64,000 nucleotides of DNA, from NCBI RefSeq assembly GCF_021917145.1, contig NW_025813796.1:1841411-1905410 (forward strand), read 5' to 3'. The translations under genes and the position numbers were made by a program. This stretch comes from Hypomesus transpacificus. Taxonomy: Eukaryota > Chordata > Actinopteri > Osmeriformes > Osmeridae. The notes beneath the pieces are model-generated. The model was not told the DNA's origin. It ran no database searches and worked only from the letters and a program-made list of their open reading frames with translations. Numbering within the stretch: the stretch's first letter is position 1; the number at the start of each line of letters is the position of its first letter. This document shows, one piece after another, positions 1 to 64,000 of the stretch.

Positions 1-548
1 TTAACTGTTTTCTGGGTGAATCTCAGATCGATGCGCACTCCAGTATGTCTCCTGCAATATTTGCGGCGGCTGTGATGTAATTCAACCAAAGATTCATTTG
101 AGAAATCCACCTTTTGCCACTTTTCCAGCGTCCATTCTTTAGCAGGCTGTGGGCCTTGGCAAATGCCACACGTTTTTTTTAAATTGCCTTTTGTTTAATG
201 CTGGTTTCTGGGCACTGATTCGACCATGGAGGCAATTTCGAGACAGAATTCTACAAACTGTCCTGGTTGACACGGACACTTGAGGTGACCAGGCCTGGTG
301 GAGCTCTGCTGCAGTGAAAAAGGGCTGTCCTTGGATTTTTGAGCCAACAAACCGTCCTCCCGAGCAGTTGTCTTGCGGGGTCTGCCGGACCTGGGCTCGT
401 TAAAAACATCTCCAGTCTCTTCAAATCTTTTTTTAATTCTTTGTACTTGACGCTGAGACACATTGAAGGTGTCAGCCACCTCAGCAGAGGATCTGGTCTT
501 CAGCCTCTTGACAATCAACGTTTTGGTCTCAGGGTGAATCTTAGGCAT
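1..548 (-). pseudogene. Tc1-like transposase remnant
   Basis: The likely start is the ATG at 546-548 (MPKIHPETK...). An N-terminal paired-like helix-turn-helix follows (VADTFNVSQRQVQRIKKRF), then a GRPRK AT-hook-like linker, the normal Tc1 order. The frame then breaks: sequence near 250-300 and 1-180 still resembles the middle of Tc1 transposase (for example VAFAKAHSLLKNGRWKSGKRW) but in shifted frames. One shift falls at an A-run near 171-183. The catalytic C-terminal half is outside the window. This is a decayed mobile-element gene, not a host gene. Confidence 0.75.
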
Positions 549-905
549 GTTGTCAGAGGTCAACTTGCAGTTGATGTGAAGGTCTGGTGTGCTGGGGTTC
601 TTTTTATACACACCCACTAATTGATTGATCAATTATTGATCACATGTAAGGCTGTAATCTAAGATTGGGTGCATTATATGACAAGGCCACAAGACTTTTG
701 TCTTGCCAAAATCTGACCTTTCTGTGTTCATTAAATGATCAATCTTCAGTGAAGCAAATTTATTTTAGTATATTAAACAAAATTTGGGAGGGTTTTAGCT
801 TTTATACGAGCCATTTCTAAAAATGAATTTATGACTTAAAAGTCAGGTTATAAATAGTTATTTCTACAAAATTGATAAGTGACAAGACTTTTGTCAGGGA
901 CTGTA
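1..905 (-). mobile_element. Tc1/mariner-like DNA transposon, truncated by window start
   Basis: The right-hand edge is at about 903, where the reverse strand begins CAGTCCCTGACAAAAGTC next to a TA dinucleotide, the usual Tc1/mariner target. The motif ACAAGACTTTTGTC occurs at 883-896 and again near 690-703. This is the inner and outer direct-repeat arrangement of IR/DR-type fish Tc1 elements. A transposase-like reading frame runs leftward from 548. The other end lies outside the window. The element sits in what is probably nup54 intron 1. Family assignment is secure; the exact subfamily is not. Confidence 0.8.
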
Positions 906-15479: not shown

Positions 15480-16740
15480 TGGACTGGTTTCGCAGACACG
15501 TATTTATGGAGGAGTAAATGTGCCATAAATAAATACATAAAAAGTAAATAAATAAAGAGACATCTCTTCAGTGATGTGAAGTTGCATGTCTTTCAAAATA
15601 AATATACATTTCATTTAAATTATGCAACACATTTCAATTTAAATGAAAAGGGGCGGGGCATAAACTATTACATGATGGAGCTGTCCTCATGTGCTTGGAG
15701 CATTGTGATTGGACACTTGAGAGCAAACTGTCAGACCTGAGCGGTCAATCAGGTAGCAGACATATAAGTTTCAATCATATTGAAACACAATTGGGCCACT
15801 TTGAAAACGATTGAACCAGATATGTTATTGTTAACATGTGGCCTGTTCTCAGTCTCAGGCCCAGAGGGCCCAGAGGGACCAGAGAGACCAGAGGGCCCAG
15901 AGGGACCAGAGGGTCCAGAGGGTCCAGAGAGACCAGAGGGACCAGAGAGACCAGAGGGACCAGAGGGACCAGAGGGTCCAGAGGGTCCAGAGAGACCAGA
16001 GGGACCAGAGAGACCAGAGGGACCAGAGGGCCCAGAGAGACCAGAGGGACCAGAGGGCCCAGAGGGACCAGAGGGACCAGAGGGCCCAGAGAGACCAGAG
16101 GGACCAGAGGGACCAGAGGGACCAGAGGGCCCAGTGGGCCCAGAGGGACCAGAGGGCCCAGAGAGACCAGAGGGACCAGAGGGCCCAGAGGGCCCAGAGG
16201 GACCAGAGGGCCCATAGAGACCAGAGGGACCAGTGGGCCCAGAGGGACCAGAGGGACCAGTGGGCCCAGAGGGACCAGAGGGACCAGACGGACCAGAGGG
16301 CCCAGAGGCTCCAGGCTGTGAATTGTACGGATAGTTTAACTGCAAGCCCACGCCTCCGGATGGACATTTTCTTAGCAAAATGGACACCTGTTATAATATA
16401 TCTGTTAAAATGAACATTCTGTTGACATTTGACTGGACAAGCTGGATTGAATATGTAACTATGTGAACCCATTGGGATGACCCTTCTGCCAGTTGTGTTT
16501 TCTTTTTCTTTGGTCTATACTTGTATTATATACTATTTTTATATTACTATATTGTTATTATAATTGTATATAATATTGTATGACATGCTGTGTGAGACTC
16601 ACTGTCAAGGAACTTGTTCTAATAAATGTTCACAAAAAGAAAAACTTGCAACTTCACATCACTTAAGAGATATCTATACTTTTTTTTATTCATATATATT
16701 TTTTTTATCTAGCTATGGCACATTTAGTCCTCCATACATA
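15480..16740. mobile_element. Inverted-repeat-flanked segment carrying a minisatellite
   Basis: The left arm at about 15508-15600 (GGAGGAGTAAATGTGCCATA ... CAGTGATGTGAAGTTGCA) is repeated in reverse complement at about 16640-16735 (GGAGGACTAAATGTGCCATA ... AAGTGATGTGAAGTTGCA on the minus strand). The arms are roughly 100 bp with indels. Between them lie about 250 bp of AT-rich DNA and the 9-bp minisatellite. The structure suggests a non-autonomous DNA element or MITE that captured or grew the minisatellite. No transposase is present and the family was not recognised. Confidence 0.55.
15856..16312. repeat. 9-bp minisatellite (GAGGGACCA variants)
   Basis: About 50 units of 9 bp with a few variant forms (AGGGACCAG, AGGGCCCAG, AGAGACCAG, AGGGTCCAG). 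Because the period is a multiple of three, several frames stay open for about 460 bp. On the minus strand one frame reads as collagen-like Gly-Pro-Ser/Gly-Leu-Ser triplets (15749-16387). No splice context, signal peptide or collagen flanks are visible, so I treat it as a non-coding tandem repeat. Confidence 0.85.
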
Positions 16741-18069
16741 TTAAGCCTAGTCTAGGACAAAAAAACAAGCTCAATGGAGTTTTCTATTGAATTCGATTTT
16801 CTGGTTCTAGAATAAACTTAATCTCTATCTGCACAACCGGCCCATGAAGTTCTTTTGAACTGTTCCCCACTTTTCCAACTATTTTCAGGGTAATTTCCAG
16901 TAGACTATAAGACTTAATAAAACTAAAGGACTTTTGGATGTTGACAACAGTCTGATTATTACCTCAACACCCTCAGATATCGGTATGTTGTTGTCTAAGA
17001 AAGACAATCAAAGAATGTTGTCTGTGTCTACTTTTCAAACACCTGCAACCCACACCCTCCACACGACCTCGATGTGGCATAGAGAGTCTTTGTGATTCAT
17101 AGTGATGGTGGCCAGTAACAGCTGCCTGTGCTGGAACTCCCTTAGCCACTGTGTGAGGTGGGAGATGACCAACACTCAAGGACTCCAATTGTTTTGATAA
17201 AAATCAAAAAATCTAAGCCCCCTCTCAATTTCACAGTTATTTTAGGAACAACATTCTTTTTCACACATCAACATTGAAGCTGCCCCTTTCCCTTTGGCTC
17301 CCTTGCAAATATGCTGGCGTACAGCTGTCCCGTCCACATAAGTTAGAAGAAACCTGGTGACACGTTGATCCTTGAATGTTTCAGAGAGCAAAATCGTTTT
17401 TTTTTCAATATATTTATTATATATTTACTATAAAGTTAAACATTTTGCCTATATAATACTCTGTATAGAACAAACCTCCCTGTCTTTGATGACCACCACC
17501 CTGTTATATTTAGCTGTTAACCTTTCTTTAAACTTCTCATATCCTGACATTATCAGCGTGCATTGTTCTGGGGAATTATAAGGAGCAATAGACTAACTGC
17601 ATGCATTGTAAAAAGCGCCCCTTTTCTGCATAAACTCCAGTTAACACCACACTAACCCAACATCTTAATCAACAGCTACATCATGGGCTTCAACCCCTCA
17701 CCTGACTATGTATCCAAATAACTTATTTCTTTCAGTTGAAAATGTGTTTTAAAATATTCTTGGTGTGGCCGAAAGGTTATTGAGTCATTGAGATTAGCAG
17801 CTCTTTATTAACTAATAGACGACTCTTGGTAACATTGCTCGGACTCTTCAAAAGACAGAAAGGTGGTTTCTTCGATAATTCAGAGTTTTAAAAAGAGCTT
17901 GGTTTCTCCACCACCTCTCTGGCAAAGAATCAACCATTAGCAAACATGACCTTTTCCTCTAATTTAGATTAGAAGTAGGAGATGGACACTACATCATTTA
18001 TAGAGTTTAACAATTAAACATATTAATCTGAAACACGTAACCAGCCAATTAAAAAAACAAATTCATTCT
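16741..18069. other. Intergenic interval between ppef2 side and gsdf unit 1
   Basis: AT-rich sequence with only short, unsupported reading frames. No exon, RNA gene or complete repeat was recognised. It ends where similarity to the second duplication unit begins (about 18070). Confidence 0.5.
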
Positions 18070-18328
18070 CTCTCTCCATCTCACAGTGAGGGAACAGCAA
18101 TGTTAAATATTCCAAGGCCAAGTTGGTGAATGCGGAGATAAAACGTAGGTTCCCAGACAACTACAAACAATAGATGCTCTCTTTCTGAGTAGAGTAGCCC
18201 CACTCAAAATCCTGACTGATTTCAAAAACGTCCCTGTCAGTCTCATCAAGACTGCAGGACCAATATCTCTCTCTATTGTGGAACCACATCTAGTTCATAC
18301 AGTTGCATTGTGATATTTCTTTCTACCT

Positions 18329-18360
18329 CTGTATAAGAGCGTCTGCTAAATGACTAAATG
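18329..18360 (+). mobile_element. SINE-tail insertion upstream of broken gsdf
   Basis: A 32-bp insertion (CTGTATAAGAGCGTCTGCTA...) matches the 3' tail of the SINEs in this window. It is bordered by a TACCT direct repeat (18324-18328 and 18361-18365). The corresponding place in unit 2 (near 27027-27031) has a single TACCT and no insert. It lies 24 bp before the ATG at 18385. Confidence 0.7.
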
Positions 18361-18384
18361 TACCTGGCTTACTAGGTATCCAAA

Positions 18385-20596
18385 ATGTCACTGGCGTTGT
18401 TTGTGATGTTTGTTGTCTTTGGTTGCTCACTTGGGGGAACATTTGTTCCGCAGCCCTCTGAGAAGGACTGAACGTCAATCTCAGACACTCCTGCTATCAC
18501 CTACCTTTTACAATCTGTGAGTCAAACTACTCAAGAAGCAGCAAATATCTGATTTATTTGGCTAATGTTATTGTGCAACAACCAATTAAAAAGTTATGTG
18601 TTTGTATTAGAGGATTAGATAACATGCCACAAAGGTTCACGTACAAAGGTAGTTGCGGAGGTTTTCCGAGGCTTCTTCAAATTAATAGGTTAAATGATGG
18701 GGAAAACATTTCTATTCCCTCTTTCAGATCAGTGTGGGATGCATAACCTGGATTTGTACCAGCCGTATGTTAGCTCTCGTAACAGGCTGTTCTGCTCAGA
18801 CATTAACAATGCAATAAATCTTTGTCAAGCACTCCTTACTTTGCACTGTGGAGTATAAAAAGACCCTTTAGGTCTGCAAAACAACTTCAAAAGCACAGAC
18901 AAATACTACACACACTACACACAGAGAGATATAGTTCTGCTATTGTAATGACACAAATAATGTGATATATTGTGATTAATAATATAGCTGAGTTGTAAGC
19001 AGTTTGTTTCAACATGGTCACTTCAAAATGCCCAATCCTGAAGCCAAAATTTAGTTTCAATTTGAAAGCCAAGTAAAACCACATGCTTGTACGGAACACA
19101 AATGGCTTTTGAATTATAGCTTCTCAGGTTGCACTGTCTCTGTAATTATGGAACTGTAAACACAAACTGTTGTGGGCACTCTCCTCTAACCTCAGCGATG
19201 TCAATAGAGTCAATACATTCTATTAATGTGATCATGTTGGCTTTATGGAATGCTTCAAGAGCACAGATTTTGTGAAAATAAACAAAATGGATGTGAAAGT
19301 GAAGGTGATGATACAGTGCTCTCCAGGTGGCATGAACAGTCACTACAAAGCATGAAGATGACCATCCTTGGTGGTCTGAACCTGCAGATGGAGCCCCAAC
19401 TGCCTTCTAGTGGACTGACTGGCATCCGAGAGCAGTGGAAGGCTGTTTTCAGCACCATCTCCCATACCCCCCGGGAAAGAGCAGGTGGGCCAGAACAGAA
19501 CCAGGGATGTAATTCAAACCGTCCTGTATTAAATGCTTAGTTGTACACAGTGTGTTATTTAGGAGTGCTCAATGTTTGTTTCCTGTCTCCTCAGTGCCTG
19601 AGGTCAACTCTGAGGGCCCCATGGCTGTCAACGGCACAGAACAGAAGTGCTGTCAGAAAGCTTCCCAGATTTTCCTGAAAGGTGAGCAGTAGGGACCATC
19701 AAACTCAAACAGAAACAACAATATGTGTGTGTGTGTGTGTGTGTTGGTAAAGTGTGCATTCTGACTCAACTATGTCTATGTCAAAACAATCTCTAATAGA
19801 TCTTGGCTGGGAAAACTGGGTCATTTATCCAGAGAGCTTCACTTTCATCCAGTGTGTCCCCTGCAACCTCCAACTGAACCTGAGCAACACCCATTCCCCA
19901 GCACACTCTCTGAACCCTCCTAACACTCCCTTGCCGGTAACGCTTGCACACCCCATATCATATGGAATTGAAAAGTACTGTGTAGACATTCTATACACAT
20001 CTACTTTATAGATGTGACACCATGTTTCATGGCTGTCTGTGATAGGGATATTATTTACATCGAACTATAAACAAACTATAAACTATCATCCATATGAGTC
20101 CAAAAGAGTGTATTTTTAATTCTGTGCATAATGGTCCTCGTTCCCACCAGTTTTATTTTATTTGGTTGAGACATGATAAAATCCCTGTTTCCACAGAGTT
20201 TTATATGTAGTTATGAATGTTTATTGTAATAAAGAAAAACCTAATGTGAGAAAACAGAATTCTCTAGTCTATGTGATCAAATATTGTGCTTTATCTATCC
20301 AGCTGTGGAAATAGAATTTTTTAATGTTCAGGACAAGGGCCACATGCAAGGTCGCCTGTGAGAAACACCAATTAAACCGGTGATTTGGTTGAGATTAGTG
20401 CTACAGCTGTGGTAATGTTTGTTAATTCCCACCATTTCTGTCTCTTGTCCTATTGGTGCAGATGTCATGCTGCCAGACGATCTCACAGGAACTGTTGCCT
20501 TTCCTGTACATGGATGAACAGCGATCCCTGGTCATATCTTCTGTTGAGGTGACCAATCTGTGGCCGCGGGCCAGGAAACCAGCCTTTCCCCAGTAA
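18385..20596 (+). pseudogene. gsdf: gsdf-like gene copy 1, disrupted
   Basis: The gene is homologous to the intact copy at 27048-29570. Exon 1-like sequence 18385-18468 encodes a signal peptide (MSLALFVMFVVFGCSLGG) but hits TGA at 18469-18471 where copy 2 has TTT. The exon 1 splice donor is also lost (CTATCACCTACC versus CTAACAAGTAAG in copy 2). Exons 2-4 (19327-19484, 19595-19681, 19800-19936) are intact and nearly identical to copy 2. Exon 5 (20462-20596) keeps CCQ and LLPFLYMDEQRSLVISSV. A 2-bp deletion, compensated by a 1-bp deletion 20-odd bases later, replaces the family-ending Cys-Gly-Cys with Trp-Pro-Arg. Loss of both the start region and the cystine-knot end argues for a pseudogene. 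Transcription from another promoter or exon cannot be excluded. Confidence 0.8.
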
Positions 20597-21934
20597 GGAC
20601 TGAGCCCCTAGCACCCACCTGCTAGAAAGCTGTCTTTTTGGTCGAAGAATTATACACTTCAAGTAAGTGTATAACTGCCGCTGTCTTATCATCAAGCCAG
20701 GCATGTGGCCTCATCCTTCCAAAATACCTTGTGACTCTGAAAATACATCAGGGAAAAGCTCTTTTTTGTAATCCCAACAAATCCAATTTATGAAACAAAA
20801 ACTCAAAAACTTCTGAAAATCTGTAACAATATTTTCTAAAAGAGGGAGCTAAATGGGAGCTATTCATAACGTTTGATGGTTAATAGATAATAAATGTTAG
20901 TGTTGGACTAATAAAACATGATATGCATTCTGAACTATTTTTAAATAGCAATGTTTCCCACTGCATGACTGGCAGTGGATTAAAGACATGCTTCTGAGTC
21001 TTCTCCCCAAAAATGTGAACTCTGGCTTAACATTCAGAGGCCAGAACTCTCTGAACTCTCTCTGAGCAGTGTTACCAACACTGGAGCTTTTAATACATTC
21101 AGACGGAAAAGGTTAATTATAGTATACTTTAAATACGACTCCTTTTCATAGTATTTTATTATCTGGATTATATTCAACAGCCAGATAATCTCTTCTCTCC
21201 GAATTGTGTTCCACTTTGTGTTTTTGCTTTGTCAACTCTGCTGTAGTTTTCCATGAACATCGACTATCCCAATTGGCTAAACTCCATATTTCATGTTCCA
21301 GGAAAGGCAAATGAGGAACATTAGTGCTCCAGTTTTTCATCAAACCAAGCACCTTTCTTCTGTGAAGAGATTTGGTTAATAAATTCACATAAACCAACAT
21401 ATGATTGTGACGATTTCCCCTGTTTGTCACATCATGTATAACAGGATAACTCTGTTTTGAGTATTGTGTCTAATAGTATTTCAGAGTACTGCTGTGGGAA
21501 CCCTTCGATCTTTTTATCTGGAATGTTTTTCCTGTATTTCATATACAGTTTACCTTGCAATTCCTTTACTGCATGTCACATTTTGTATAGTCATGGTAAT
21601 CTTCATCACGTATATATATACAATTTGTAAGCCTTTTGTATTCCAGTACTTTAATAACAATGTTTTAAATGTATGTCATCATGTGACCATGTTGTTTCTT
21701 TGGTGGCCAATGTCAATAATGCATCTATCAACTGCATTATTACGTGTTTAAATTCTTGGAATAAAGCCATCCAAAGATAATTTAGTTGCTTCAGACTGCT
21801 TTTCATCTGAAGTATGTAAATAGTAACCTTAATATTTTGATTAGCCAAGAATGATCTCTAACTGCACCTTAGACTATGTAAAATAGATTAAGTATACAAT
21901 TTATGGCTCTAACAGCTATTTAGTTGATCTGTTC
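20597..21934. other. Spacer between gsdf copy 1 and secreted-protein gene copy 1
   Basis: No gene recognised. The interval is alignable in pieces to 29571-31257 in unit 2. That interval additionally has the LTR-like insertion at 30846-31050. Short open frames here are not conserved between the two units. Confidence 0.5.
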
Positions 21935-22309
21935 AGTTCCTATTAATGACATGTGTTTAGGATCTAGAGTGCAGCGGAGGCCAGAAAGAGGGTGGAGGGA
22001 AACGGTTGGAGAAATGTTGGCACTCTGTTATGGAAACGCACCCCAGAGATAAGCATCAATGTTGCGCACTTCTAAAAAACGGCTCCAGCATTTCAGTAGC
22101 AGTGCATGGATTTTCTTTCTTAAAATTCACTCTTTTTTTCCCTGGTTCTTTGGTGAGTGTATGTTTGTAACTTGGAATGTGGAGTTATGTAGCCATTTCA
22201 GATAATCCCAGAGGATTGAACCAAGTTACATCAACTGCTGGGAACGGCACTGGCAGGAAAGGCTGCATCTACACTTTCTGCAAAAACTTTTGAGTTTTCA
22301 CAGGTCAAA

Positions 22310-23172
22310 ATGGCGAGCTCCTTTTTTTGGCTTTCCTGTGATATTCTGTTTGCTCTGCTCTTGATGATCGGAACTCTTGGGGTTGGTGCTGAGTGTGGGG
22401 CAGTGACTTCTGTCAAAACTCTGGAAGAGATGGACAGAGATCTGACCAATCCATCCAAATGTTTGCTGGACTGCACTACAGGGACCTACGTGAGAAAGCT
22501 GCAGGTCCGAGACACTCAGACGATTCGCTTCAAAGACTCATCAGCAGGTGAGAAATATTTTTTGATCATAATAATTGTATCTCTCTCATACACTGTACAG
22601 TATTTGTGAATACATAGAGTAGGTTAGTCCTTAATTAAACTTTACTTTATCAGTGTACATGGCTACTGGTAGTAAGGGTGTGCTTTTCAGATTGTAAAAG
22701 TCATCCTTATGAAATGTTTTACAAAGTCAATTAAGATCACAGACATATATAGCAGACTTAACCTGTACCGGGATGCGTAAAAGCATGATCCTTTTCCTCA
22801 GATGACCAAGGAGAATACTGCTGGTCAACACAGATTAAGTGTGAGGCTGGAGAACATTTGGAGCGTGCTTACATCCTGCTGCCTGTTGATAAATCTCAGC
22901 TGGAGGAGTCCATGGGACTGAAGATGACTCTACCCCCCATTACAGATGCACTGTGGCCTCACCGCCAGCAAACACTACTCCCCAACAACTGTGGCCTTCA
23001 ATTCGACATCACGCCCCATTTTTCCACAGGACCGAGGGAGCCAAAGCTTTGTGTCAAGGCCAATTTCCAGGAGAGCATTGTGGGAAATGGAGTCCTCAGA
23101 TGTCCCCCTTTCATGGTGACAATGTGGCAGAAAAAGCAGAATGACTCACCGACAAGTCAAGAAAGAGGGTGA
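22310..23172 (+). CDS. Uncharacterised small secreted Cys-rich protein, copy 1
   Basis: Two exons: 22310-22547 (ends in phase 1 at gtgaga) and 22802-23172 (stop TGA), 202 aa. The start gives a clear signal peptide (hydrophobic FALLLMIGTLGVGA) followed by Glu-Cys. Past the signal region I count eight cysteines, three in exon 1 and five in exon 2, in contexts SKC, LLDC, YCW, IKCEAGEH, NNC, LCVK and LRCPPF, which would fit four disulfides. The C-terminus is polar with no membrane anchor. I do not recognise the family. It follows gsdf in the same orientation and was duplicated with it. Both copies are open, which implies selection or recent conversion. AGGTCA sits directly before the ATG. Confidence 0.75.
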
Positions 23173-23830
23173 ATGAACATGAGATAATTTGACAACCATT
23201 CAAATTACTGGTTGGTAACAAGCTTGGTGTGCTATTGCCTATCAAGTTACTTCAATTGTAGTCCACAGCGTTAATAAGTCAGCATTTATGAAAATTTGCA
23301 TCTGAACCGTACAGCATTGCTAGACTCATGCCTATAATAGAAATCTAGTCAGCAGCATTTTGCTTTTAAAATCATTGGCATTCTTCCACAAAGGCTGTGA
23401 ACTAAGACCGTGAGGTTCTGTGACCTGAAGTATAACTAAAGTGGACTGTCAAACGGACAGCGTAGCTTGGACTGAATGTGGGGATGATTTACAACAGTCA
23501 TTGGTGCCAGAGGTCATTGTGAAGTGAAAGGAAATTGTAGTATTTCATTTCTTGCAAAATGACAATGTCATCTTTAAATAAGCTGTATGAGTTTAAGCTA
23601 TTGCTCTCTTGTAATAATAATTCTTTCAAGACATTCAAAAAACTTTTGGGATGGCACATTTCAGCACAGAATGCTTGCTTTTGATTAAATACATACTGAA
23701 GTGTGTGAATCTGAAATGCTGCTCATTTAGAGTTGTATATACCATACAGTTTGTTAGACTGACTGAATGGCAATAATATTAAAACAATTTTACATGGTTC
23801 AAGACGTGTCTCTTTTACAATTAAGTCACT

Positions 23831-26744
23831 CCCATACATGTTATGAACTACAGGAGATCTGAGAGAACCATACAAATGTGTTACAAAATGTATTATTGTA
23901 ATTGTACCTACTCTTAACATAATTATTGTAAATCAGAGAGCGAGAACAATAGCAAGACAAAGAGGATTGAACTCATGAAGAAGAGGGAGAACCATGGTCA
24001 CATTCCCTCTTATTCAAAAACATTTCTGTGAGAATCTAACTGTAAATAATAAATAAATATATATGTGAGATAACAATGGTTTGTGCTCGCCAAAGGCAAG
24101 CACACCCCAATTAGACCACATTACATTTAGGCATTTAGCAGACGCTCTTATCCAGAGTGACTTACAGTAAGTACAGGGACATTCCCCCTGAGGCTAGTAG
24201 GGTGAAGTGCCTTGCCCAAGGACACAATGTCATTTGGCACAGCAGGGAATCGATCCAGCAACCTTCTGATTACCAGCCCGACTCCCTCACCGCTCAGCCA
24301 CCTGACTAACATCTTGACCTTAATTTATCAGTGTACATGGCTACCTATAGCATAGGAAACCACACAATGAAGTGTGACAAACATCATGCTGAATTTCATC
24401 CAGAAACTCATGTCTTTTGCATTTAAGACTGCATTTTATTTTGTGTGTGTGTGTTTGTGTGTGTGTCCCACCAATTTTATCACGGGCACTGCACTATATA
24501 TAGTTTTAAGTCATCTGTATTTGTGTGTTTCACTGGCATCTTAATCACCAACTGCATCACAGGCATTATGCACTACTTTTATATTAATATAACATTATCA
24601 ATATTGTATACTTGACTATTTTACACAAGACCAGACTACTAATAATTTTAAACAGGACAAAATCAAATCCATCACAAAGGTGACCATTGAGAGTTAGAGC
24701 TGACAATTCACATGCAATTTTTTTAATAAAAAAAAAACTTTCTATGTAAGGAATATTTTGGACTTCAAGAGAAATAGGTGTGTGTCTGGTGGGTGAAGAC
24801 GGGTTTGATTACTCTGACATACATTAGAATCCTGCACCGGGTCTGGTATACCAGAGGTTCCCCGCAGGTAACCCGCTAAAATATAATCTTTGGGGTTAAG
24901 GCTTGCGGTTCATAACTATTGCAGGTCGGAAAAGTTATTAAAATAAAATGTTTCAAGATGTGTTTAATGTTGTAATTGGCATGATACTCAAACAAGGGAG
25001 TTTGGTTTGAACATTGGTGGTACAGTGTTACCATTCTGTTATCGATGCTCCTGCCTGTTGCTAAAAGCATGAGCAGAAAGCGTCTGTGTAAAAAAAAAAA
25101 AAACACACTCACATGCACACGATTCTGCATTACATACAATAGTGCCACAAAATTTATAAATGCTTAAGCGACATCACAGGAATATTGGCCAACGTTTGGA
25201 GTCTAAAACACTTAAATAAATCTATTCCTCTTTTTAACGGGAAAGGAGTCGGCTCTCAGAACAATTAAATGCGGTTGGTTCGGGGGAAAATCTGTCCTCA
25301 TGTCGGGTGTCGGTGTGGTCTCGGAATTGAAGTTGTCGGCGTGGTTCGGTTACGGCTCCAAAAACGAAACCGTGCAGGACTCTAACGTACAGTAGCCTGC
25401 CCTAGATTGCACTGTGTATACTTTTGCAGGAGAAACAAAATAGCAGGAACATTAGCACATAAGCTTATCCCAGCTTATGGTTTTTGGTTTTGTCCCAGTA
25501 TTACTTCACATTTCATATTTGAGGCTCAGACCAGACTTCAGCTCAGGTCATACAGGCTGATGTAACGTTTCAGGTGATCAAGTTCAGGCCCTTAGCAAAG
25601 AGAGGGCACCTGAGGACGTGAAGTTGCCCTTCCACCACGCATGTCTGGAACAGTTGATGCTGCTTTGCTTTTTTCAATCAATGCTGCAACAGTCTTCATT
25701 ATTGTTACATTTTAGTTTTCGGTCTGGAATTCATGTCCTTGAATGGCAGGTGCAAAGCATAAATATTATTCAGAGGTTATCAGTCAAGATTGATGCGTTT
25801 CATGTAGGTCCAAACGTAAGGGGAGGTAATTATGGGAGTTGTACAACTTCCCTTCAACAAGAACTGCATGGCTATCAGCCCCTGGTGTTCAGACCTTGGC
25901 ATTGGCAACATTATAATTTTGTTACACTGACTCTCCATGTTGTGGCGTACCCAGAATATTTTACATATGGGTGGCCACTGGCCAGATGTGTCTAGTTGTT
26001 ATTTCAGGTGGGCATAAACACAAAAACACCTATAGTATTGCTGTTCCTGCGGGGACACATTATTGAGTCCCATTAACACTGCTGTTTTCTTAACACCTAG
26101 CCTTGAACTTCACATTAACCTTGACCCTAACCCAAAATTCTAACCCTGATTCTAGCTCAGTCTAAACCTTTGAAGTAATCCTAACCCTAAAACTATTTCT
26201 AACCCTAACCTCCCAACTCCAACCAGACTGATTCTGACCCTAGAAATGCTCTTGATCGTGTGGGTGGAAACCAACTAAAGTCCCCACAAGGAAAACATTT
26301 CTGTTAGTATCCAAAATCTGTGAACACGTCTTCAGATAGCTGAGTTTTTGATTCAACCACATATTTCCCTGAATTATCTAGAACAAATTAAACTAAGGGT
26401 GTCAAAAATGTAAATTACACGGTTTTATTTGGAAAACTGTAAGGTACCTGGCTATTCAGGTCGCTCAAAAAATTACAGCACAACACTAAGGCATAGGGCT
26501 GTCTAGCAAAACACTTAGCTAGTCTATAGGTGCCGAGATGCTGGTTAGCGTGTTAGGTGTCATTTATTTGAAAGCATATCTTGGCCTTGTCCCGAGCGCT
26601 GAATAAATCAGTACAGGTGCAATGCCTTTAACATGTCACATTCTGTTGAAACTAGGATGTTGTAAAAAAATACTAAAAAATCACTTCCTTTTACTCAATG
26701 GAAATGCAGTCAATGTTTTTGTCTTGGTAATCGGGATCTCTCGC
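23831..26744. other. Spacer between the two duplication units
   Basis: Holds one SINE (24119-24307), a short GT repeat (about 24440-24467), a poly-A run near 25089-25102 and a stretch rich in CTAACC/CCTAAC (about 26095-26220). The frame at 25618-25995 has no recognisable domain or splice context. No gene is supported. Confidence 0.5.
24119..24307 (-). mobile_element. tRNA-derived SINE, copy 2
   Basis: Reverse-oriented copy of the SINE at 13754-13939. It begins with the tail (CATTTAGGCATTTAGCAGAC) and ends with the tRNA-like head (CCGCTCAGCCACCTGAC). It lies between the two duplication units and so marks DNA outside the repeated segment. Confidence 0.85.
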
Positions 26745-27047
26745 TCTCTCTCCATCTCACACTTGCAGGATAACAATGTTAAATATTCCAAGGCCAAGTT
26801 GGTGAATGCAGAGATAAAACGAAGCTTCCCAGGCCACCACAAACAATAAATGCTCTCTTTCTGAGTAGAGTAGCCCCTCTCAAAATCCTGACTGATTTCA
26901 AAAACATCCCTGTCAGTCTCGTCAAGACTCCTCTTCCTCTGCCACCAAGCCTGCAGGACCAATATCAGTTTTTCCTTTAAAATCCCATCTAGTTCGGACA
27001 GTTGTATTTGGGATATTTCTTTCTACCTGGCTTACTAGGTATCCAAA

Positions 27048-29570
27048 ATGTCACTGGCGTTGTTTGTGATGTTGGTTCCCCTTGGTTGCTCACTTGGGAG
27101 AACATTTGTTCTGCAGCCCTCTGAGAAGGACTTTACTTCAACCTCCGAAACTCATGCTAACAAGTAAGTTTTAAAATCTCTGTTTTTTTCAATATTTGTG
27201 CAATTTAGATCAACTTGGCTAGTTGCTACACATTTACAATCCACAGGAAGCAACTAAGATCCATTTAAATGGAAATCCAAATTTAGGCTCTCCCACTCTC
27301 TGATCCTGTTTTTGTTGTTGTGTTTTTTAAGTAGGGTGCTTGGAAAATGTGATGTCAAGTGTTTAAAAACTGAACATGTAAATAAAAGTAAGGGACACTC
27401 ATATGTATATTGTCTATGGGTGTGTATCAGAAGGAAAATTATCTGGATGCCATCAAAGTTGCTTGGTTGATTTCACAAGCCAGACAAAGAGAGACAAAGT
27501 TATTAGCAGGGTTGAAATTCCCTTACTGGAAGGTCATTTTATTAAACTCTATTTAGCATACAGTTACCCTTTGTAGATGAGGGTAGTCAACTGTATATGC
27601 TCACAGTCACAGGCCAGACACACCGAAAGGCTTGTGGTTGAAATCTTCAAATTCGCAAGTCATTTTTATTGGGGAACATTCCCATCCCAAATTTTAGATT
27701 GGAGGGAAAAGCCTATGGCCTGGAGTTTCATCAGCCGTGTCAGCTCTTGTAACAGGTCGTTTTCCTCAGGCATTAGCAACATAATCAATCTCTCCCTGTC
27801 AAGCACTCAAAAGATTGCACTGTGGAGCACAAAAAGGTCCTTTTGGTCTGCAAAACAACTTTGAGACAAATCCTACACATAGGTCAGATACATTAGGATA
27901 TTGTTTTGAAACAAACATACTTATCAAATCAATTTGGGCTATTTGTGTGATGAGTGAAGCTGGGTTGTTAGCAGTTTGTTTCAGCATGGTGATTTAAAAA
28001 TATCCATTCAGGAAAACAAAATGGTCATTTTGAAAGCCCGATTTGAAACCATGCGCTTGAATGGAACACAAGCATTCAGCATTGACTCCATAACTAACTG
28101 TGATCACTAACATAAAAAAAAAAAAAGGCAGCATTTTTTTAAATTACCATTAACTGTTGTAGGCACTCTCCTCAAACCTCAACAATGTCAGTGGAGTCAA
28201 TTCAATTACTCGATTAATGTGATCACGTGATTCATGTGAGCTTCTTAGAATGTTTCCCGAGCTAAAGCACTCATTTCTGACAACAGAAAATGTATGTGAA
28301 GTTGATGATGATATTTTGCTCTCCAGGTGGCATGGACAGTCACTACAAAGCATGAAGATGACCATCCTTGGTGGTCTGAACCTGCAGATGGAGCCCCAAC
28401 TGCCTTCTAGTGGACTGACTGGCATCCGAGAGCAGTGGAAGGCTGTTTTCAGCACCATCTCCCATACCCCCCGGGAAAGAGCAGGTGGGCCAGAACAGAA
28501 CCAGGGATGTAATTCAAACCGTCCTGTATTAAATGCTTAGTTGTACACAGTGTGTTATTTAGGAGTGCTCAATGTTTGTTTCCTGTCTCCTCAGTGCCTG
28601 AGGTCAACTCTGAGGGCCCCATGGCTGTCAACGGCACAGAACAGAAGTGCTGTCAGAAAGCTTCCCAGATTTTCCTGAAAGGTGAGCAGTAGGGACAATC
28701 AAACTCAAACAGAAACAACAATATGTGTGTGTGTGTGTGTTGGTAAAGTGTGCATTCTGACTCAACTATGTCTATGTCAAAACAATCTCTGATAGATCTT
28801 GGCTGGGAAAACTGGGTCATTTATCCAGAGAGCTTCACTTTCATCCAGTGTGTCCCCTGCAACCTCCAACTGAACCTGAGCAACACCCATTCCCCAGCAC
28901 ACTCTCTGAACCCTCCTAACACTCCCTTGCCGGTAACGCTTGCACACCCCATATCACAGAAATACCACATCTACATAGTACATAATGTATGTGAAACTGT
29001 ACATGTCTTAAATGGGTATCTGTGTTAGGCATTTTATCCATAGCTTTACAACGTGTATACAATCATTTAAAAATGTATATTTTTCCCAGTCTGTGTATAA
29101 TGAGCCTCATTCTCACCAGATTTTACTTGTGTGAGACACGATAAAAGCACAGTTTCCACAGGCTTTTACTGTACATTTGTAATAAACGATGAGAAAAGAG
29201 AGTGCTCTAGACTCTGCCCAAATAGATAACAGTGCTTTGTCTATCCAGCTGTGGAAATAGAATGTTTTAATCTTTCAAGACACGGGCCATGTGCAAGGTC
29301 ACCTCTGAGAAACACCAGTTAAACTTGTGAGACAGTATAGACTACTGCTACCCACAGTACAGCTGTAGTAACTTTGTTACATTTCTAGAAATTTCTCTCA
29401 ACCTCTCTCGATCTCTTGTCTTATTGGTGCAGATGCCTTGCTGCCAGCCGACCTCACAGGAACTGTTGCCTTTCCTGTACATGGATGAACAGCGATCCCT
29501 GGTCATATCCTCTGTTCAGATGACAAGTTTGTGTGGCTGCAGCCCAGGAAACCAGCCATTCCCCCAGTAA
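27048..29570 (+). CDS. gsdf: Gonadal soma-derived factor-like (gsdf), intact copy 2
   Basis: Secreted TGF-beta-superfamily-like factor expressed in Sertoli/granulosa cells of fish. Exons: 27048-27163, 28327-28484, 28595-28681, 28796-28932, 29433-29570 (636 nt, 211 aa, stop TAA). A signal peptide (MSLALFVMLVPLGCSLG) starts exon 1. The cystine-knot region begins at KCCQKASQIF in exon 3 and continues with DLGWENWVIYPESF and QCVPC in exon 4, and PCCQPTSQELLPFLYMDEQ and CGC in exon 5. The usual TGF-beta Cys-x-Gly-x-Cys is C-V-P-C, lacking the glycine, which fits what is known of GSDF. N-glycosylation sequons NGT and NLS are present. The exon 4 end is uncertain: donor gtaacg at 28933 is in phase and precedes the point where the two copies diverge, but gtatgt at 28987 is also in phase. 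Context nup54-ppef2-aff1 supports the call. Confidence 0.85.
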
Positions 29571-30845
29571 GGACTGAGCCCCTAGCACCCACCTGCTAGA
29601 AAGCTGTCTTTTTGGTCGAAAATGAATGCCTTTCAAGTAAGACTGCTGCTGTTATCATAAAGCCTGATTGGCATGGGGTCTCATCCTTCCAAAATACCTT
29701 GTGACTGAAAACACATTAGTGAGAAGTTATAATCCCAACAAATATAATTTAGAGAAAAACTTTTAAACATTGAAAATCTGTAGACATTTCCAAAAAACTG
29801 TGTAAGAGCCAAATTCAAGTTTCTTTCAACTTCCTGGAATGGGATTGCAGAGAACAGTGGGAGCTATTAATAAAGTTTGACAGTTAATAGATCTGTTTTG
29901 ACAGTTAATAGATCTAGAATAGAAGTGTTAGTCTTGGCTTAATCTGATATGCATTCTGAACTATTTTATATAGCAATGTTTCCTTCTGCATGACTGGCAA
30001 CTGGCAGTGGATTAAAGGCAAGCTTCTGAGTGTTCTCCCCAAAAATGTGAACCCTGGCTTAACATTCAGAGGCCAGAACTCTCTCAACTCTCTCTGAGCA
30101 GTGTTACCAACACTGGAGCTTTTAATACATTTAGAAGGGAAAGGTTGATTGTAGTATACTTTAAGTCCAACTCCTTTTCCCAGTATTTTCAAACATTGGA
30201 TATTCAATATATTTTCCTAGTTTCCAATAGTTCCTCACAGTTTTTCTTTTTTTTTTTTACTATGCTTTGCCAACTCTGCAGTAGTTTTCCTTCAACATCC
30301 ACTGCCAATGCCCTGATTGGCTATGCTCCATATTTCATGTTTTGGCTAGTTGGAAAGGCAAATGTGAAACAATAATTCTCCAGTATATAACAAAGCCCCA
30401 TTTTTGTAAAGATATTTTGTTCTGTTCATAAATTCAGATGGACCAACCAGTAGTTGCCCTACGCTACTGGGATCAACGTGTAATAATTACAATTTCCCTA
30501 TTTGATATTTGCCACATGATAAACAACAGGATGACTCTGTTGTTTGCTCTTTGCTCTTGACGTGTTTACTTTGAGCAGGGTGTGTCTTAACCAGATTTTA
30601 AACATCCAGAGTACCACAGAGGGAACCTTTCTTTTTATCTGGAATGTTTTTCCATTTATTTTATGTAAATATTTACTTCACAGTTCCCTTTCTTCACGTT
30701 GTATTATCAGTATAATATTGATCACATATACTGCATATACAGTGTGTAAACCTATTTTATCTCACTCTTTGACTAACAATGTTTTGTTAAGTGTATGTCA
30801 TCATTAACCATATTCTTACTTTGGTGGCCAATGTCAGCAATGTAT

Positions 30846-31050
30846 TGTAGCGACCCTGGAAATTGTTTAAGTGCATTTCTTTAAGTGCTGTTCTCGGCTT
30901 GGTGGGCAGGGGCTCTCTGTATGGCTCCACTCCCGTGTGTGTGCAAGAACGTGTATCTGCAAGAAACTAGCAAATTTAATAAACCTCATCCAGTGTTCTT
31001 TATCTCCCATTCCATTATCCTGAGTTAGCATCCTGGCTAGGGGTGTCACG
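30846..31050. mobile_element. Solo-LTR-like insertion in unit 2
   Basis: A 205-bp segment starting TGTAGCGACC is present in unit 2 and absent from the matching place in unit 1 (near 21722). It is flanked by GTAT on both sides (30842-30845 and 31051-31054). It contains an AATAAA at about 30978 followed by GT-rich DNA, as in the R/U5 part of LTRs. No internal coding region accompanies it. LTR identity is inferred from shape only. Confidence 0.5.
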
Positions 31051-31630
31051 GTATCTATCAACTGCATGATTATCTGTTTAATTTCTTTGAATAAAACCAT
31101 TTAAAAAAAATCAGTTGCTTCTGACTGTTTTTAATGGAAACGGTATGTAAATTGAAAACTTAATATCTGATGAGCCAAGAATGATCTAACTGCACCGTAG
31201 ACTTCAGATTAAGTATACAGTTTATGGCTCCAACAGTTGTTCAGTTGATCTATTCAGTTAATATTAATGACATGTGTTTAGTACCTAGAGTGCAGCGGAG
31301 GCCAGAAAGAGGGTGTGGGGAAACGGTTGGAGAAATGTTGGCACTCTGTCATGGAAATGCACCCCAGAGATAAGCATCAATGTTGCGCACTTCTAAAAAA
31401 CGGCTCCAGCATTTCAGTAGCAGTTCATGCTTTTTTCTTCTTAAAATTGACTCTTTTTTCCCTGGTTCTTTGGATTTGTGTATGTTTGTAACTTGGAATG
31501 TGGAGTTATGTAGCCATTTAAGATAATTCCCGAGGATTGAACCAAGTTACATCAACTACTGGGAACGGCACAGGCAGGAAAGGCTGCATCTACACTTTCT
31601 GCATCAACTTTTGAGTTTTCAAAGGTCAAA

Positions 31631-32665
31631 ATGGCGAGCTCCTTCTCTTTTTGGTTTTCCTGTGGTTTTCTGTTTCCTCTGCTCTTGATAATGGGAACTT
31701 TTGGGGTTGGTACTGAGTGTGGGGCAATGGCTTCTGTCAAAACTCTGGAAGAGATGGACAGAGATCTGGTCAATCCATCCAAATGTGTGCTGGACTGCAC
31801 TACAGGGACCTACATGAGAAAGCTGCAGGTCCGAGACACTCAGACGATGCGCTTTAAAGACTCATCAGCAGGTGAGAAAAGATACATGTTGCTGATAACA
31901 TTATCTCTCCATCTCTTGACAAACATTTTGAACTTCTTTGTCATTATTATTATTTTTTTTTTTTTCTTATTTTATATTTGAGATATTACATTGTATAGTA
32001 TTGTTTTAGAATTATTTAGACTGTTGTACTTTTTCTACTTTTATTTAAGATTCTTACATGGCAAATATGGATAATTTTGAGTCTGATTCTGATTACAGTA
32101 CAGTATTAGTAAATAGGTAGAGTAGAGCAGGCCACTGCTTCATTAAACCATAGTATTAAGGGTATGCTCTTTAAATTGTGAAATGTATGATTTATCACAA
32201 TTATTATTGTGAAATATTTCAAAAAGTGAATGAAAATCTGAGGCACAGAGTTCACCTGTACAAGGATGTGTAAAAGCATGCTCCTATTCCTCAGGTGACC
32301 AAGGAGAATTCTGCTGGTCAACACAGATCAAGTGTGAGGCTGGAGAACATTTGGAGCGAGCTTACATCCTGCTGCCTGTTGATAAATCTCAGCTGGAGGA
32401 GTCCATGGGACTGAAGATGACTCTACCCCCCATTCCAGATGCACTGTGGCCTCACCGCCAGCAAACACTACTCCCCAACAACTGTGGCCTTCAATTCGAC
32501 ATCACGTCCCATTTTACCACAGGACCGAGGGAGCCAAAGCTTTGTGTCAAGGTCAATTTCCAGGAGAGCATTGTGGGAAATGGAGTCCTCAGATGTCCCC
32601 CTTTCATGGTGACAATGTGGCAGAAAAAGCAAAATGACTCACCGACAAATCAAGAAAGAGGGTGA
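31631..32665 (+). CDS. Uncharacterised small secreted Cys-rich protein, copy 2
   Basis: Two exons: 31631-31871 and 32295-32665, 203 aa. It is one codon longer than the copy at 22310-23172 (within MASSFSFWFSC). The signal peptide and all eight later cysteines are kept. Differences are scattered substitutions such as WCST-context Tyr to Phe (EFCW) and Thr to Met near the end of exon 1. The sequence 5' of the gene (31258-31630) and 3' of it (32666-32985) is also very close to unit 1, while the intron is not. Function unknown. Confidence 0.75.
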
Positions 32666-33330
32666 ATGAACATGAGATAATTTGACAACCATCCAAAATA
32701 CTGGTTGGTAACAAGCTTGGTGTGCCATTGCCTATCAAGTTACTTCAATTGTAGTCCACAGAGTTTTTGAGTCAGCATTTATGAAAAGTTGCATCTAAAC
32801 CGTACAGCATTGCTAGACTCATGCCTATAATAGAAATCTAGTCAGCAGCATTTTGCTTTTAAAATTATTGGCATTCTTCCACAAAGGCTGTGAACTAAGA
32901 CCGTGAGGTTCTGTGACCTGAAGTATAACTAAAGTGGACTGTCAAACGGACAGCGTAGCTTGGACTGAATGTGGGGATGATTTCCCCACATGATTTTGTC
33001 ATTGGTGCCAGAGGTTTGTGAGGCGATGGGAAATTGTTGTATTTCATTTCTTGCTAAATTACAATTTAATCTTTAAGCTGTGTGGATGTGAACTATTGCT
33101 GTCTTCTAATTCTTTTTTTGTGAAGACATTTGAAAACTACTGGAATGGCACATTTATGCATAGAATGGTTGCTTTTTTTTAAGAAAAAAATAAAGTTTGT
33201 GAACCAAAATGCTGCTTATTTAGAGTTGTAATACCATACAGTTTATTCGACTTATGTCTGACCAAATGCCAATAACATTAAATCTATTTTACATGGTTTA
33301 AGAATTGCGTCTCTTTTACATGTCTAACCC

Positions 33331-61258: not shown

Positions 61259-63929
61259 TCAGGTTTCAGACTCTCCTCCAAAGTTGGGATTGTGGAAAGC
61301 AGGCTGCAACACAGGAGCATGGAAACCCAAGTTTAGGAACGACACGGAAACAGATCATCACCTGTACTTTCGAAGCGTGTTCGTTTTATGGCAGCTGAAA
61401 GGGCTCTTACGTACCACATCGACATCCTTGGTGGTTCTGGTTGGTAAACTGATGGTGCTTAGCTTCACTCCTCTCACAGAGAACACGTAGTAGAGAAGCC
61501 CCAGGATGAGGGCAAAAACCGCCAGGGCTCCGATGATGGCACCAGCTATCACCCCCCCTTCTAGTCAGGTAGAAGACACACATTACATTTAGTCATTTAG
61601 CAGAAGCTCTTATCCAGAGCGACTTACAGTAAGTAGGCTACATGGACGTTCCCCCCCGAGGCAAGTAGGGTGTAGTGCCTTGCCCAAGGACACAACGTCA
61701 TTTAAACACAGCCGGGAATCGAACCAGTGACCTTCTGATTACTAGCCCGATTCCCTAACCGCTCAGCCATCTGACTCCCCAGGGACCTCACACAGGTGAG
61801 GTTATGTTGTAACACGATAGGGGATGATATACCTTTAGGATACAGTGACGGGTAATCTCCCCTGAAAACAACCGTACAATGGCAATCAACTGAGGCTAGC
61901 CTTGAGTGAGAGGTCAACCTCCAGGTGTATCGGTCGAGCTACAGTGAGAAATACAACTTACGGCCGATTGCAGGAGCATCAGTCGGAATGACGATATTGC
62001 CGCTGTCGTCTGTCGTGTAGTCTGTGGGAAAGAAAATGTAAGAAGCGATTCAGTTCATTTTTTCCCACAGCTTTGCAAAAAACAACGCCTAAATTGCAAA
62101 CACAAAGCGTGGAAGCGGGCACTAGCATTCCGACTTGACTGATCTTAGCGCACCGCTTCTCAAATGTCACCCTAGGGACACGTTTGGAGAGCTGGGAGAG
62201 ATAGTACGTGGTTATCAAGCTTTTTATTTTATTTAGTAGCGCAAGTGCAAATAGTCTCACATTGGCGATGGCGGCACACAAAGCCTCTCTTCTGCACGCA
62301 GTTGTTGTCGTTCCAGTGGCCGTCGGGATACAACTCGCCACAGTTTTCCGCTCCCACCTCTCCAGGGTGGAAGGCATCGTTCGGTTCACCTGGAGCCCAG
62401 TTCAGGAAGGCCAGAGACGTCCTGTCTGTCCAGCTCCAGCCGACTGGCAACAGAAACAAATATTAGAACACGGACTGTGGATGATGGTGATCCAGTATCA
62501 ACATGAGCAGCCCACATTCCACTTGCGCTGAAAGAGTATGTTGGTATTGGCCGTGAACTCGAAATGGAATGCTCGCATTGGAAAACGAAACCCGATGATT
62601 CATTTGAGGTGAATGGGACCAGAGGATGGGGACTGCCTGCTCTAAGATTAGGCTTCTTCTAGCTAGGAAGCTAGGTAGAGCAGTTAACCATGTCGTGCCG
62701 AAATCGGTGACCTTTCGAAAACTGCGACCAGGGGGTCACTGTTCTGAAGGCTTGCCATAGGAAATGTTGGTGCCCTAACCTAACCCTAACAACTGAACAG
62801 ATTGGCAAGCCATCTGAACAGCGACCCCTGGCCACTGGCCCTGACCACCGATTTCGGTACAACAACCACAATGCAGGACTCACAGTTAATGTCCCGGGTG
62901 AGTCCGATCCAGAGGTTGTGAGCCTTGCTGTGGTTGAGGGTTCTGATGAACTCGGACTCAGCTCGGCTGTGGATGGACACCAAGTCTCCCTTGGCCAGCT
63001 GGCAGTAGTGCCTGGACTCTGGCCAGGAGAACCCCAGGGGTTCATTGTAAACAAAGTAGCAGTAACGACCGTAGGCATGCCAGCCAGGCAGGCATTTCCC
63101 ATCCCCTGGTGTCGGGGTCGGAGGGGGCGCCTCTGAGGACACACACACAGACAGACAGGCATCATGACATGGAAGAGAACGAGAGAAAACTTGATAAACT
63201 TCTACCCATTGATTTTTTGTAAAATATCGTTACTTTTGAAAAGTTGTGTCGCCGTACGTTTCCAATACAGCGCTAGAACTAAGTAATAGGGCTCGCCTCC
63301 CATTGGTTTGTACCTGAGGAGATCTTGCAGATGTAGGGCCTAGCCGAGTCACAGGCCGTGTCGTTCCACGTCCCGTGGAAATGGACGGAGCCGTGCATGC
63401 TCACGCAGCCCTCACCCTTGTGGTTGCTAGGCTCCCCCGGCCCCCAGTGGGTGAAGAACACCGGCCAGCCATCTGTCCACGAATAGGAATCCCCATCGTC
63501 CTGCAGAAACAACACGCAACAGACACTATGAAGAGAATAAGGTACCACAACCAAGATACACCAAAAAAGGTGTACCTTGGCCAAGCATTTTTTCTTTTTT
63601 TTAAGCTGTCAGTGTTTCCCTCGCTTCAGATCAGTTGTCATACGTTTTACAATTGGACCCTACTGAATCCAGCCCGTGTCCATCCACACGTACCTTGCGC
63701 CTAAGTCCAATCCAGGCGTCCGCTCTGCCTTGCAGGACCACCCCGCTGACGAAGGACTGGTCGTAGCTCATGTCAATGCTGGCCAAGTTGCCCCCTTCCT
63801 GCTTGCAGGCAGCTTGGGCATCATCCCATTTCTTGGGCTCCTCCACCAGCTTGTAGCAGTTCTTATACCAGGAGATGTACCCGGCTTTACAGGGGTTGTT
63901 AGTCGGGGGCGGAGGAGCAATGCTGCTGG
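61259..63929 (-). CDS. Macrophage mannose receptor-like C-type lectin, 3' part (runs off window)
   Basis: Type I endocytic receptor of the mannose-receptor family. Exons in coding order: 63929-63694, 63500-63314, 63132-62884, 62443-62261, 62021-61962, 61560-61415, 61303-61259; phases agree. Two C-type lectin domains are each encoded by an exon pair. The first has CYKLVEEPKKWDDAQAAC, WIGLRRK, WGPGEPSNH and GTWNDTAC. The second has CYFVYNEPLGFSWPESRHYC, NLWIGLTRD, WAPGEPND and GHWNDNNC. The second keeps EPN and WND, the mannose-type Ca2+/sugar motif; the first has EPS. A short stalk exon, a membrane segment (AGAIIGALAVFALILGLLYY) and a tail with FHNPNF follow. If the donor at 61414 is ignored, the frame stops instead at 61358. 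The gene is probably mrc1-like, but a related fish paralogue is possible. Earlier domains are beyond position 64000. Confidence 0.82.
61582..61778 (-). mobile_element. tRNA-derived SINE, copy 3
   Basis: Reverse-oriented copy of the SINEs at 13754-13939 and 24119-24307. The tail CATTTAGTCATTTAGCAGA comes first, the body has GTGCCTTGCCCAAGGACAC and the head CCGCTCAGCCATCTGAC. It sits in the intron between the stalk and membrane exons of the lectin gene. Confidence 0.85.
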
Positions 63930-64000
63930 CTGTGGTACACACAAAACACACCCCTTGAGTTTCCGGAGAGAAAGAAAATCCTAGACTTTGGCATGCGTCT

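What the first reader, a model, noticed from the sequence alone, without database searches (positions are those of the whole stretch)
18070..33330. Tandem duplication of a gsdf locus with one intact and one broken gsdf
A two-gene unit (gsdf-like + unknown secreted protein) is present twice in direct orientation between ppef2 and aff1. gsdf copy 2 is complete; copy 1 has lost its start exon and its cystine-knot end. Because gsdf has become a sex-determining gene in some fish, a duplicated gsdf locus with an asymmetric fate is a candidate for sex-linked or dosage variation. The duplication and lesions are seen directly; any link to sex is inference.
Basis: partly seen in the sequence, partly recalled or inferred. 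Interest (0 to 1): 0.88.

Follow-up and report, generated by a model that had tools for sequence, protein, structure and literature searches.

The report
Duplicated smelt gsdf-plus-partner gene pair
A fish of the smelt family carries two old side-by-side copies of a gene pair, the gonad growth factor gsdf and a little-noticed secreted neighbour; one gsdf is broken while both neighbours are intact, and the neighbour looks like the missing part of the growth factor's own precursor.

The parts
18068..23819 (+). unit 1 of the tandem duplication
   Evidence: self-alignment
18385..18500 (+). gsdf copy 1, broken exon 1 (TGA at codon 29, splice donor lost)
   Evidence: sequence
19327..19936 (+). gsdf copy 1, exons 2-4 (19327-19484, 19595-19681, 19800-19936), open
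19317..19960 (+). recent gene-conversion tract shared with 28317-28956 (641 columns, 4 differences)
   Evidence: flanking introns 66-70% identical
20462..20596 (+). gsdf copy 1, exon 5, frame open but both terminal knot cysteines missing
22310..23172 (+). neighbour (prodomain-arm-like) gene, copy 1: exons 22310-22547 and 22802-23172, 202 aa, intact
22803..23490 (+). second homogenised tract (688 columns, 19 differences) shared with 32296-32983
23820..26743 (.). spacer not shared between the units; holds an interspersed repeat with a UnaL2-type LINE 3' end at 24125-24178 (- strand)
26744..33320 (+). unit 2 of the tandem duplication
27048..29570 (+). gsdf copy 2, five exons, intact, 211 aa
28327..28484 (+). 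gsdf exon 2 of copy 2: prodomain-straitjacket-like segment
   Evidence: profile of relatives, O. mordax protein first
31631..32665 (+). neighbour gene, copy 2: exons 31631-31871 and 32295-32665, 203 aa, intact

Best explanation
An old tandem duplication, in the smelt lineage, of a two-gene module: gsdf and a conserved secreted partner directly downstream. Unit 2 is complete. In unit 1 gsdf is a pseudogene, but the partner survives. Gene conversion, most simply unit 2 to unit 1, keeps parts of the units alike (the mosaic is shown; the direction is inferred). The partner is most likely a free-standing TGF-beta prodomain arm. Gsdf keeps a straitjacket-like helix and the growth-factor knot but has no arm, and the partner supplies an arm without a growth factor. 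I infer that the two secreted proteins associate in trans to fold, hold or deliver Gsdf, and that unit 1 now adds partner dose without ligand. My odds: duplication, pseudogene and conversion 0.93; partner homologous to a prodomain arm 0.65; acts on Gsdf in trans 0.4.
Confidence: 0.6

Rival explanations
1. The partner is an unrelated secreted beta-sandwich protein that merely sits next to gsdf; linkage and co-duplication are passive.
Against: Prodomains rank first by VIA for two different proteins; collinear match to the arm and 1-2 of 300 shuffles as good; linkage seen in Dallia, Scortum and Osmerus.
Confidence: 0.3
2. The duplicated gsdf is a sex-determining or sex-linked dosage locus in this smelt.
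For: gsdf is a sex determiner in some fishes (passages of PMC5979292, and PMC8389408); one active and one dead copy.
Against: The duplication looks old, the extra copy is the broken one, and O. eperlanus proteins suggest that the duplication is shared between species. No male/female data. The O. eperlanus genome note lists sex chromosomes as not identified.
Confidence: 0.06
3. gsdf copy 1 is still active through another start, for example the ATG at 19250 that reads into exon 2, or a donor at 18517.
For: Exons 2-5 stay open; the ORF from 19250 runs into exon 2; a donor-like site lies at 18517; one O. eperlanus gene model begins in the matching intron.
Against: The 18517 donor lies behind the TGA. 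The intron start gives no obvious signal peptide (by eye). The knot end is missing. Exon 1 shows 10 nonsynonymous and 2 synonymous changes.
Confidence: 0.06
4. Assembly artefact: two haplotypes joined in series.
For: Direct orientation and near-identity in gsdf exons 2-4.
Against: Introns about 30% different with many indels, a 2.9-kb spacer not shared between the units, and a mosaic of identity.
Confidence: 0.02

Closest known systems
Tandem gsdf duplicates of orange clownfish and pinecone soldierfish (PMC12989411, abstract and passages)
   Same: Two adjacent gsdf genes from a lineage-specific duplication; in clownfish on the same strand.
   Different: Those are described as recent, with high identity. 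Here the duplication is old, one gsdf is dead, conversion is visible and a second gene is duplicated with it.
gsdfY of Oryzias luzonensis (PMC5979292 and PMC8389408, passages) and gsdf of Atlantic halibut (PMC8824383, listing and passages)
   Same: gsdf as a male-pathway gene.
   Different: Those are reported as sex-determining. Here no sex link is tested and the extra copy is broken.
TGF-beta family prodomains (BMP9, BMP10, activin A, TGF-beta1)
   Same: Predicted fold, collinear late-arm motifs, and an ORF that ends after the last arm strand.
   Different: Encoded as a separate protein without growth factor; Pfam PF00688 does not match.
Stand-alone propeptides acting in trans, e.g. the malaria SUB1 propeptide-like inhibitor (PMC6993865, search listing and start of abstract only)
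   Same: A propeptide-like protein that acts on a separate mature partner.
   Different: A protease system; analogy only.

Membership tests
Gsdf (copy 2) | TGF-beta growth-factor domain | tested here: met
   PF00019 50.6 bits against cut-off 27
Gsdf (copy 2) | No glycine between second and third knot cysteines (signature stated in PMC12989411) | tested here: met
   reads CVPC in the translation
Gsdf (copy 2) | Homology to named Gsdf proteins, and aff1 nearby | tested here: met
   78 hits, many named gonadal somatic cell derived factor, e.g. P0005 and P0007; the nearest hit, P0001, is labelled BMP4-like by its source. aff1:
Functional Gsdf (copy 1) | Intact start exon spliced to exon 2 | tested here: not met
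   TGA at codon 29, donor lost
Functional Gsdf (copy 1) | Complete C-terminal cysteine knot | tested here: not met
   both terminal cysteines missing; three salmonid Gsdf proteins lack one of them
TGF-beta propeptide (partner gene) | Match to PF00688 | tested here: not met
   0 of 22 members at E up to 5
TGF-beta propeptide (partner gene) | Arm-domain fold | tested here: inconclusive
   prodomains top-ranked by VIA, but low-confidence models and tied Z
TGF-beta propeptide (partner gene) | In one chain with a growth factor behind a furin site | tested here: not met
   ORF ends ...QERG with no growth factor
Sex-determining gsdf duplicate | Linkage to phenotypic sex | not testable with these tools
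   one assembly, no sexed reads

The most novel reading that the evidence does not exclude
Gsdf is a split TGF-beta precursor: one gene encodes straitjacket plus growth factor, the neighbouring gene encodes the prodomain arm, and the two assemble in trans. The pair arose by duplication of a full ligand gene and complementary loss of parts, and has stayed linked in several teleost lineages. The still uncharacterised signalling of Gsdf would then reflect a missing second subunit.
Probability: 0.38. Interest if true: 0.88.

Novelty: new variant of a known kind. Interest (0 to 1): 0.62.

Why it matters
Gsdf is a key male-pathway factor in fish, yet PMC12989411 (abstract) still calls it an orphan ligand with uncharacterised signalling. 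If its prodomain arm is a separate, linked gene, Gsdf made alone in the laboratory may be missing its partner, and the partner becomes a direct candidate in sex-determination work. The smelt locus would be a natural case in which partner dose is doubled without ligand dose.

Tried and rejected
The haplotig explanation was rejected on divergence. Purifying selection alone was rejected as the cause of the identical exons 2-4, because introns 2-3 are identical or nearly so while introns 1 and 4 are not. Positive selection on the partner's first exon (dN/dS 2.4, 15 against 2 changes) is too few sites to claim. Orthology of the O. eperlanus gene model P0002 to copy 1 is undecided: its exon 5 resembles copy 1 (CCQTIS) but its intron-1 end resembles copy 2. 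The exact species was not settled. No tRNA and only two Rfam matches, both LINE 3' elements, were found. Five paper searches for a separate prodomain gene, a Gsdf prodomain or propeptide, or gsdf with furin listed 4, 3, 4, 12 and 2 papers, none evidently about this (listings and abstract starts, plus passages of PMC5979292). 'gsdf' with 'smelt' gave one paper, on ayu. Nine papers hold 'gsdf' and 'gene conversion'; I saw that listing, and of these only passages of PMC8824383, found with other terms. Supplements and subscription papers were not searched.

Full report
What is there. The window comes from an osmerid smelt: the nearest Gsdf protein is from Osmerus mordax (91%) and the nearest neighbour-gene protein from O. 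eperlanus (92%). Neither is identical, so the window is probably from another smelt species; which one was not settled. Between a ppef2-like gene (weak evidence) and aff1 (AF-4 family domains) lie two direct units, 18068-23819 and 26744-33320, separated by 2.9 kb that the units do not share.

gsdf. Copy 2 has five exons and encodes 211 aa with a TGF-beta domain. Copy 1 keeps the same five exon positions. Its first exon still has the ATG and signal peptide but meets a TGA at codon 29 and has lost the splice donor. Exon 5 is open but lacks both terminal knot cysteines. A donor-like site at 18517 lies behind the stop. I therefore call copy 1 a pseudogene. A caution: three salmonid Gsdf proteins in the alignment (P0003, P0004, P0006) also lack one of the two terminal cysteines, so the exon 5 lesion alone would not be proof.

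Age and conversion. Introns 1 and 4 of gsdf and the intron of the neighbour are 66-71% identical between units (JC 0.37-0.45), yet gsdf introns 2 and 3 are 100% and 98%. A tract of 641 columns has 4 differences and scores 597 against at most 76 in 1,000 shuffles; a second tract over the neighbour's last exon and 3' end has 19 differences in 688 columns. Exon synonymous divergence is also low (dS 0.04 for the neighbour, 0.08-0.10 for gsdf exons 1 and 5). Selection on protein does not keep introns identical, so conversion is the best reading; the direction from unit 2 to unit 1 is inference. Two alleles joined by the assembler would not look like this.

The neighbour gene. It is intact in both units (202 and 203 aa, 90% identical). 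Pfam and the PDB do not recognise it by sequence: only chance-level matches. A profile search found 22 proteins in teleosts from Aldrovandia and Astyanax to perches. Four species are named in both the Gsdf and the neighbour lists. In Osmerus eperlanus, Dallia pectoralis and Scortum barcoo the two genes appear to share a contig (equal contig lengths), with consecutive locus tags in the latter two; in Aldrovandia affinis they do not. Seven unnamed proteins on contigs of 1.1-1.9 kb run without interruption across the intron position, while P0096 and P0097 carry extra residues exactly there. That suggests spliced transcripts and a conserved intron (inference).

What Gsdf lacks. None of 28 Gsdf proteins matches the prodomain model in Pfam. 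The region encoded by exon 2 aligns with the straitjacket helix of TGFB1, GDF8 and INHBA in each separate comparison (24, 13 and 1 of 200 shuffles as good), and 0 of 300 for the three together. With six prodomains it was 0 of 150, and 8 of 150 for the BMP trio. Gsdf then passes almost directly to the growth factor: the arm is missing at the exon 2/3 border.

Reading. The simplest story that joins these facts is a split precursor: straitjacket plus growth factor in gsdf, arm in the neighbour, perhaps by duplication of a full ligand gene and complementary loss. The joint duplication in smelts then copies a working module, and unit 1 now supplies only the arm. Dallia may show something similar: its Gsdf model begins with a stray piece of a second growth-factor domain (19 residues, 53%, E 3e-5) and its neighbour model contains two partial copies. 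Function in trans is not shown.

Against the literature. PMC12989411 (abstract and passages) reports lineage-specific gsdf duplications, adjacent copies in clownfish and soldierfish, and calls Gsdf an orphan ligand; the passages seen do not mention a linked prodomain gene. Five searches for such a gene or a Gsdf propeptide listed nothing evidently relevant. The tandem duplication itself is thus a new member of a known kind; the partner gene is what would be new.

Noticed in passing
window 15861-16308: About 50 copies of a 9-bp minisatellite (CCAGAGGGA), reading as Gly-Pro-Ser-type repeats on the minus strand (ORF 15749-16387), between the ppef2-like gene and gsdf copy 1.
   Followed up: no
P0033 and P0082 (Dallia pectoralis): Gene models that carry remnants of a second gsdf and a second neighbour copy, suggesting a duplication of the unit in this esociform too.
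   Followed up: partly
window 29540-29580: The last residues of gsdf copy 2 (PFPQ) differ from O. mordax and O. eperlanus (PFPSKD), pointing to a frame difference at the very end.
   Followed up: no
P0003, P0004, P0006 (salmonids): Gsdf proteins with only one of the two terminal knot cysteines.
   Followed up: no
window 24125-24178 and 61587-61640: Two UnaL2-type LINE 3' ends, one in the spacer between the units.
   Followed up: no
window 195-632, minus strand: ORF that looks like a Tc1/mariner-type transposase fragment (recognised from memory).
   Followed up: no
window 62786-63951, minus strand: C-type lectin domains of a gene that may run off the window end.
   Followed up: no
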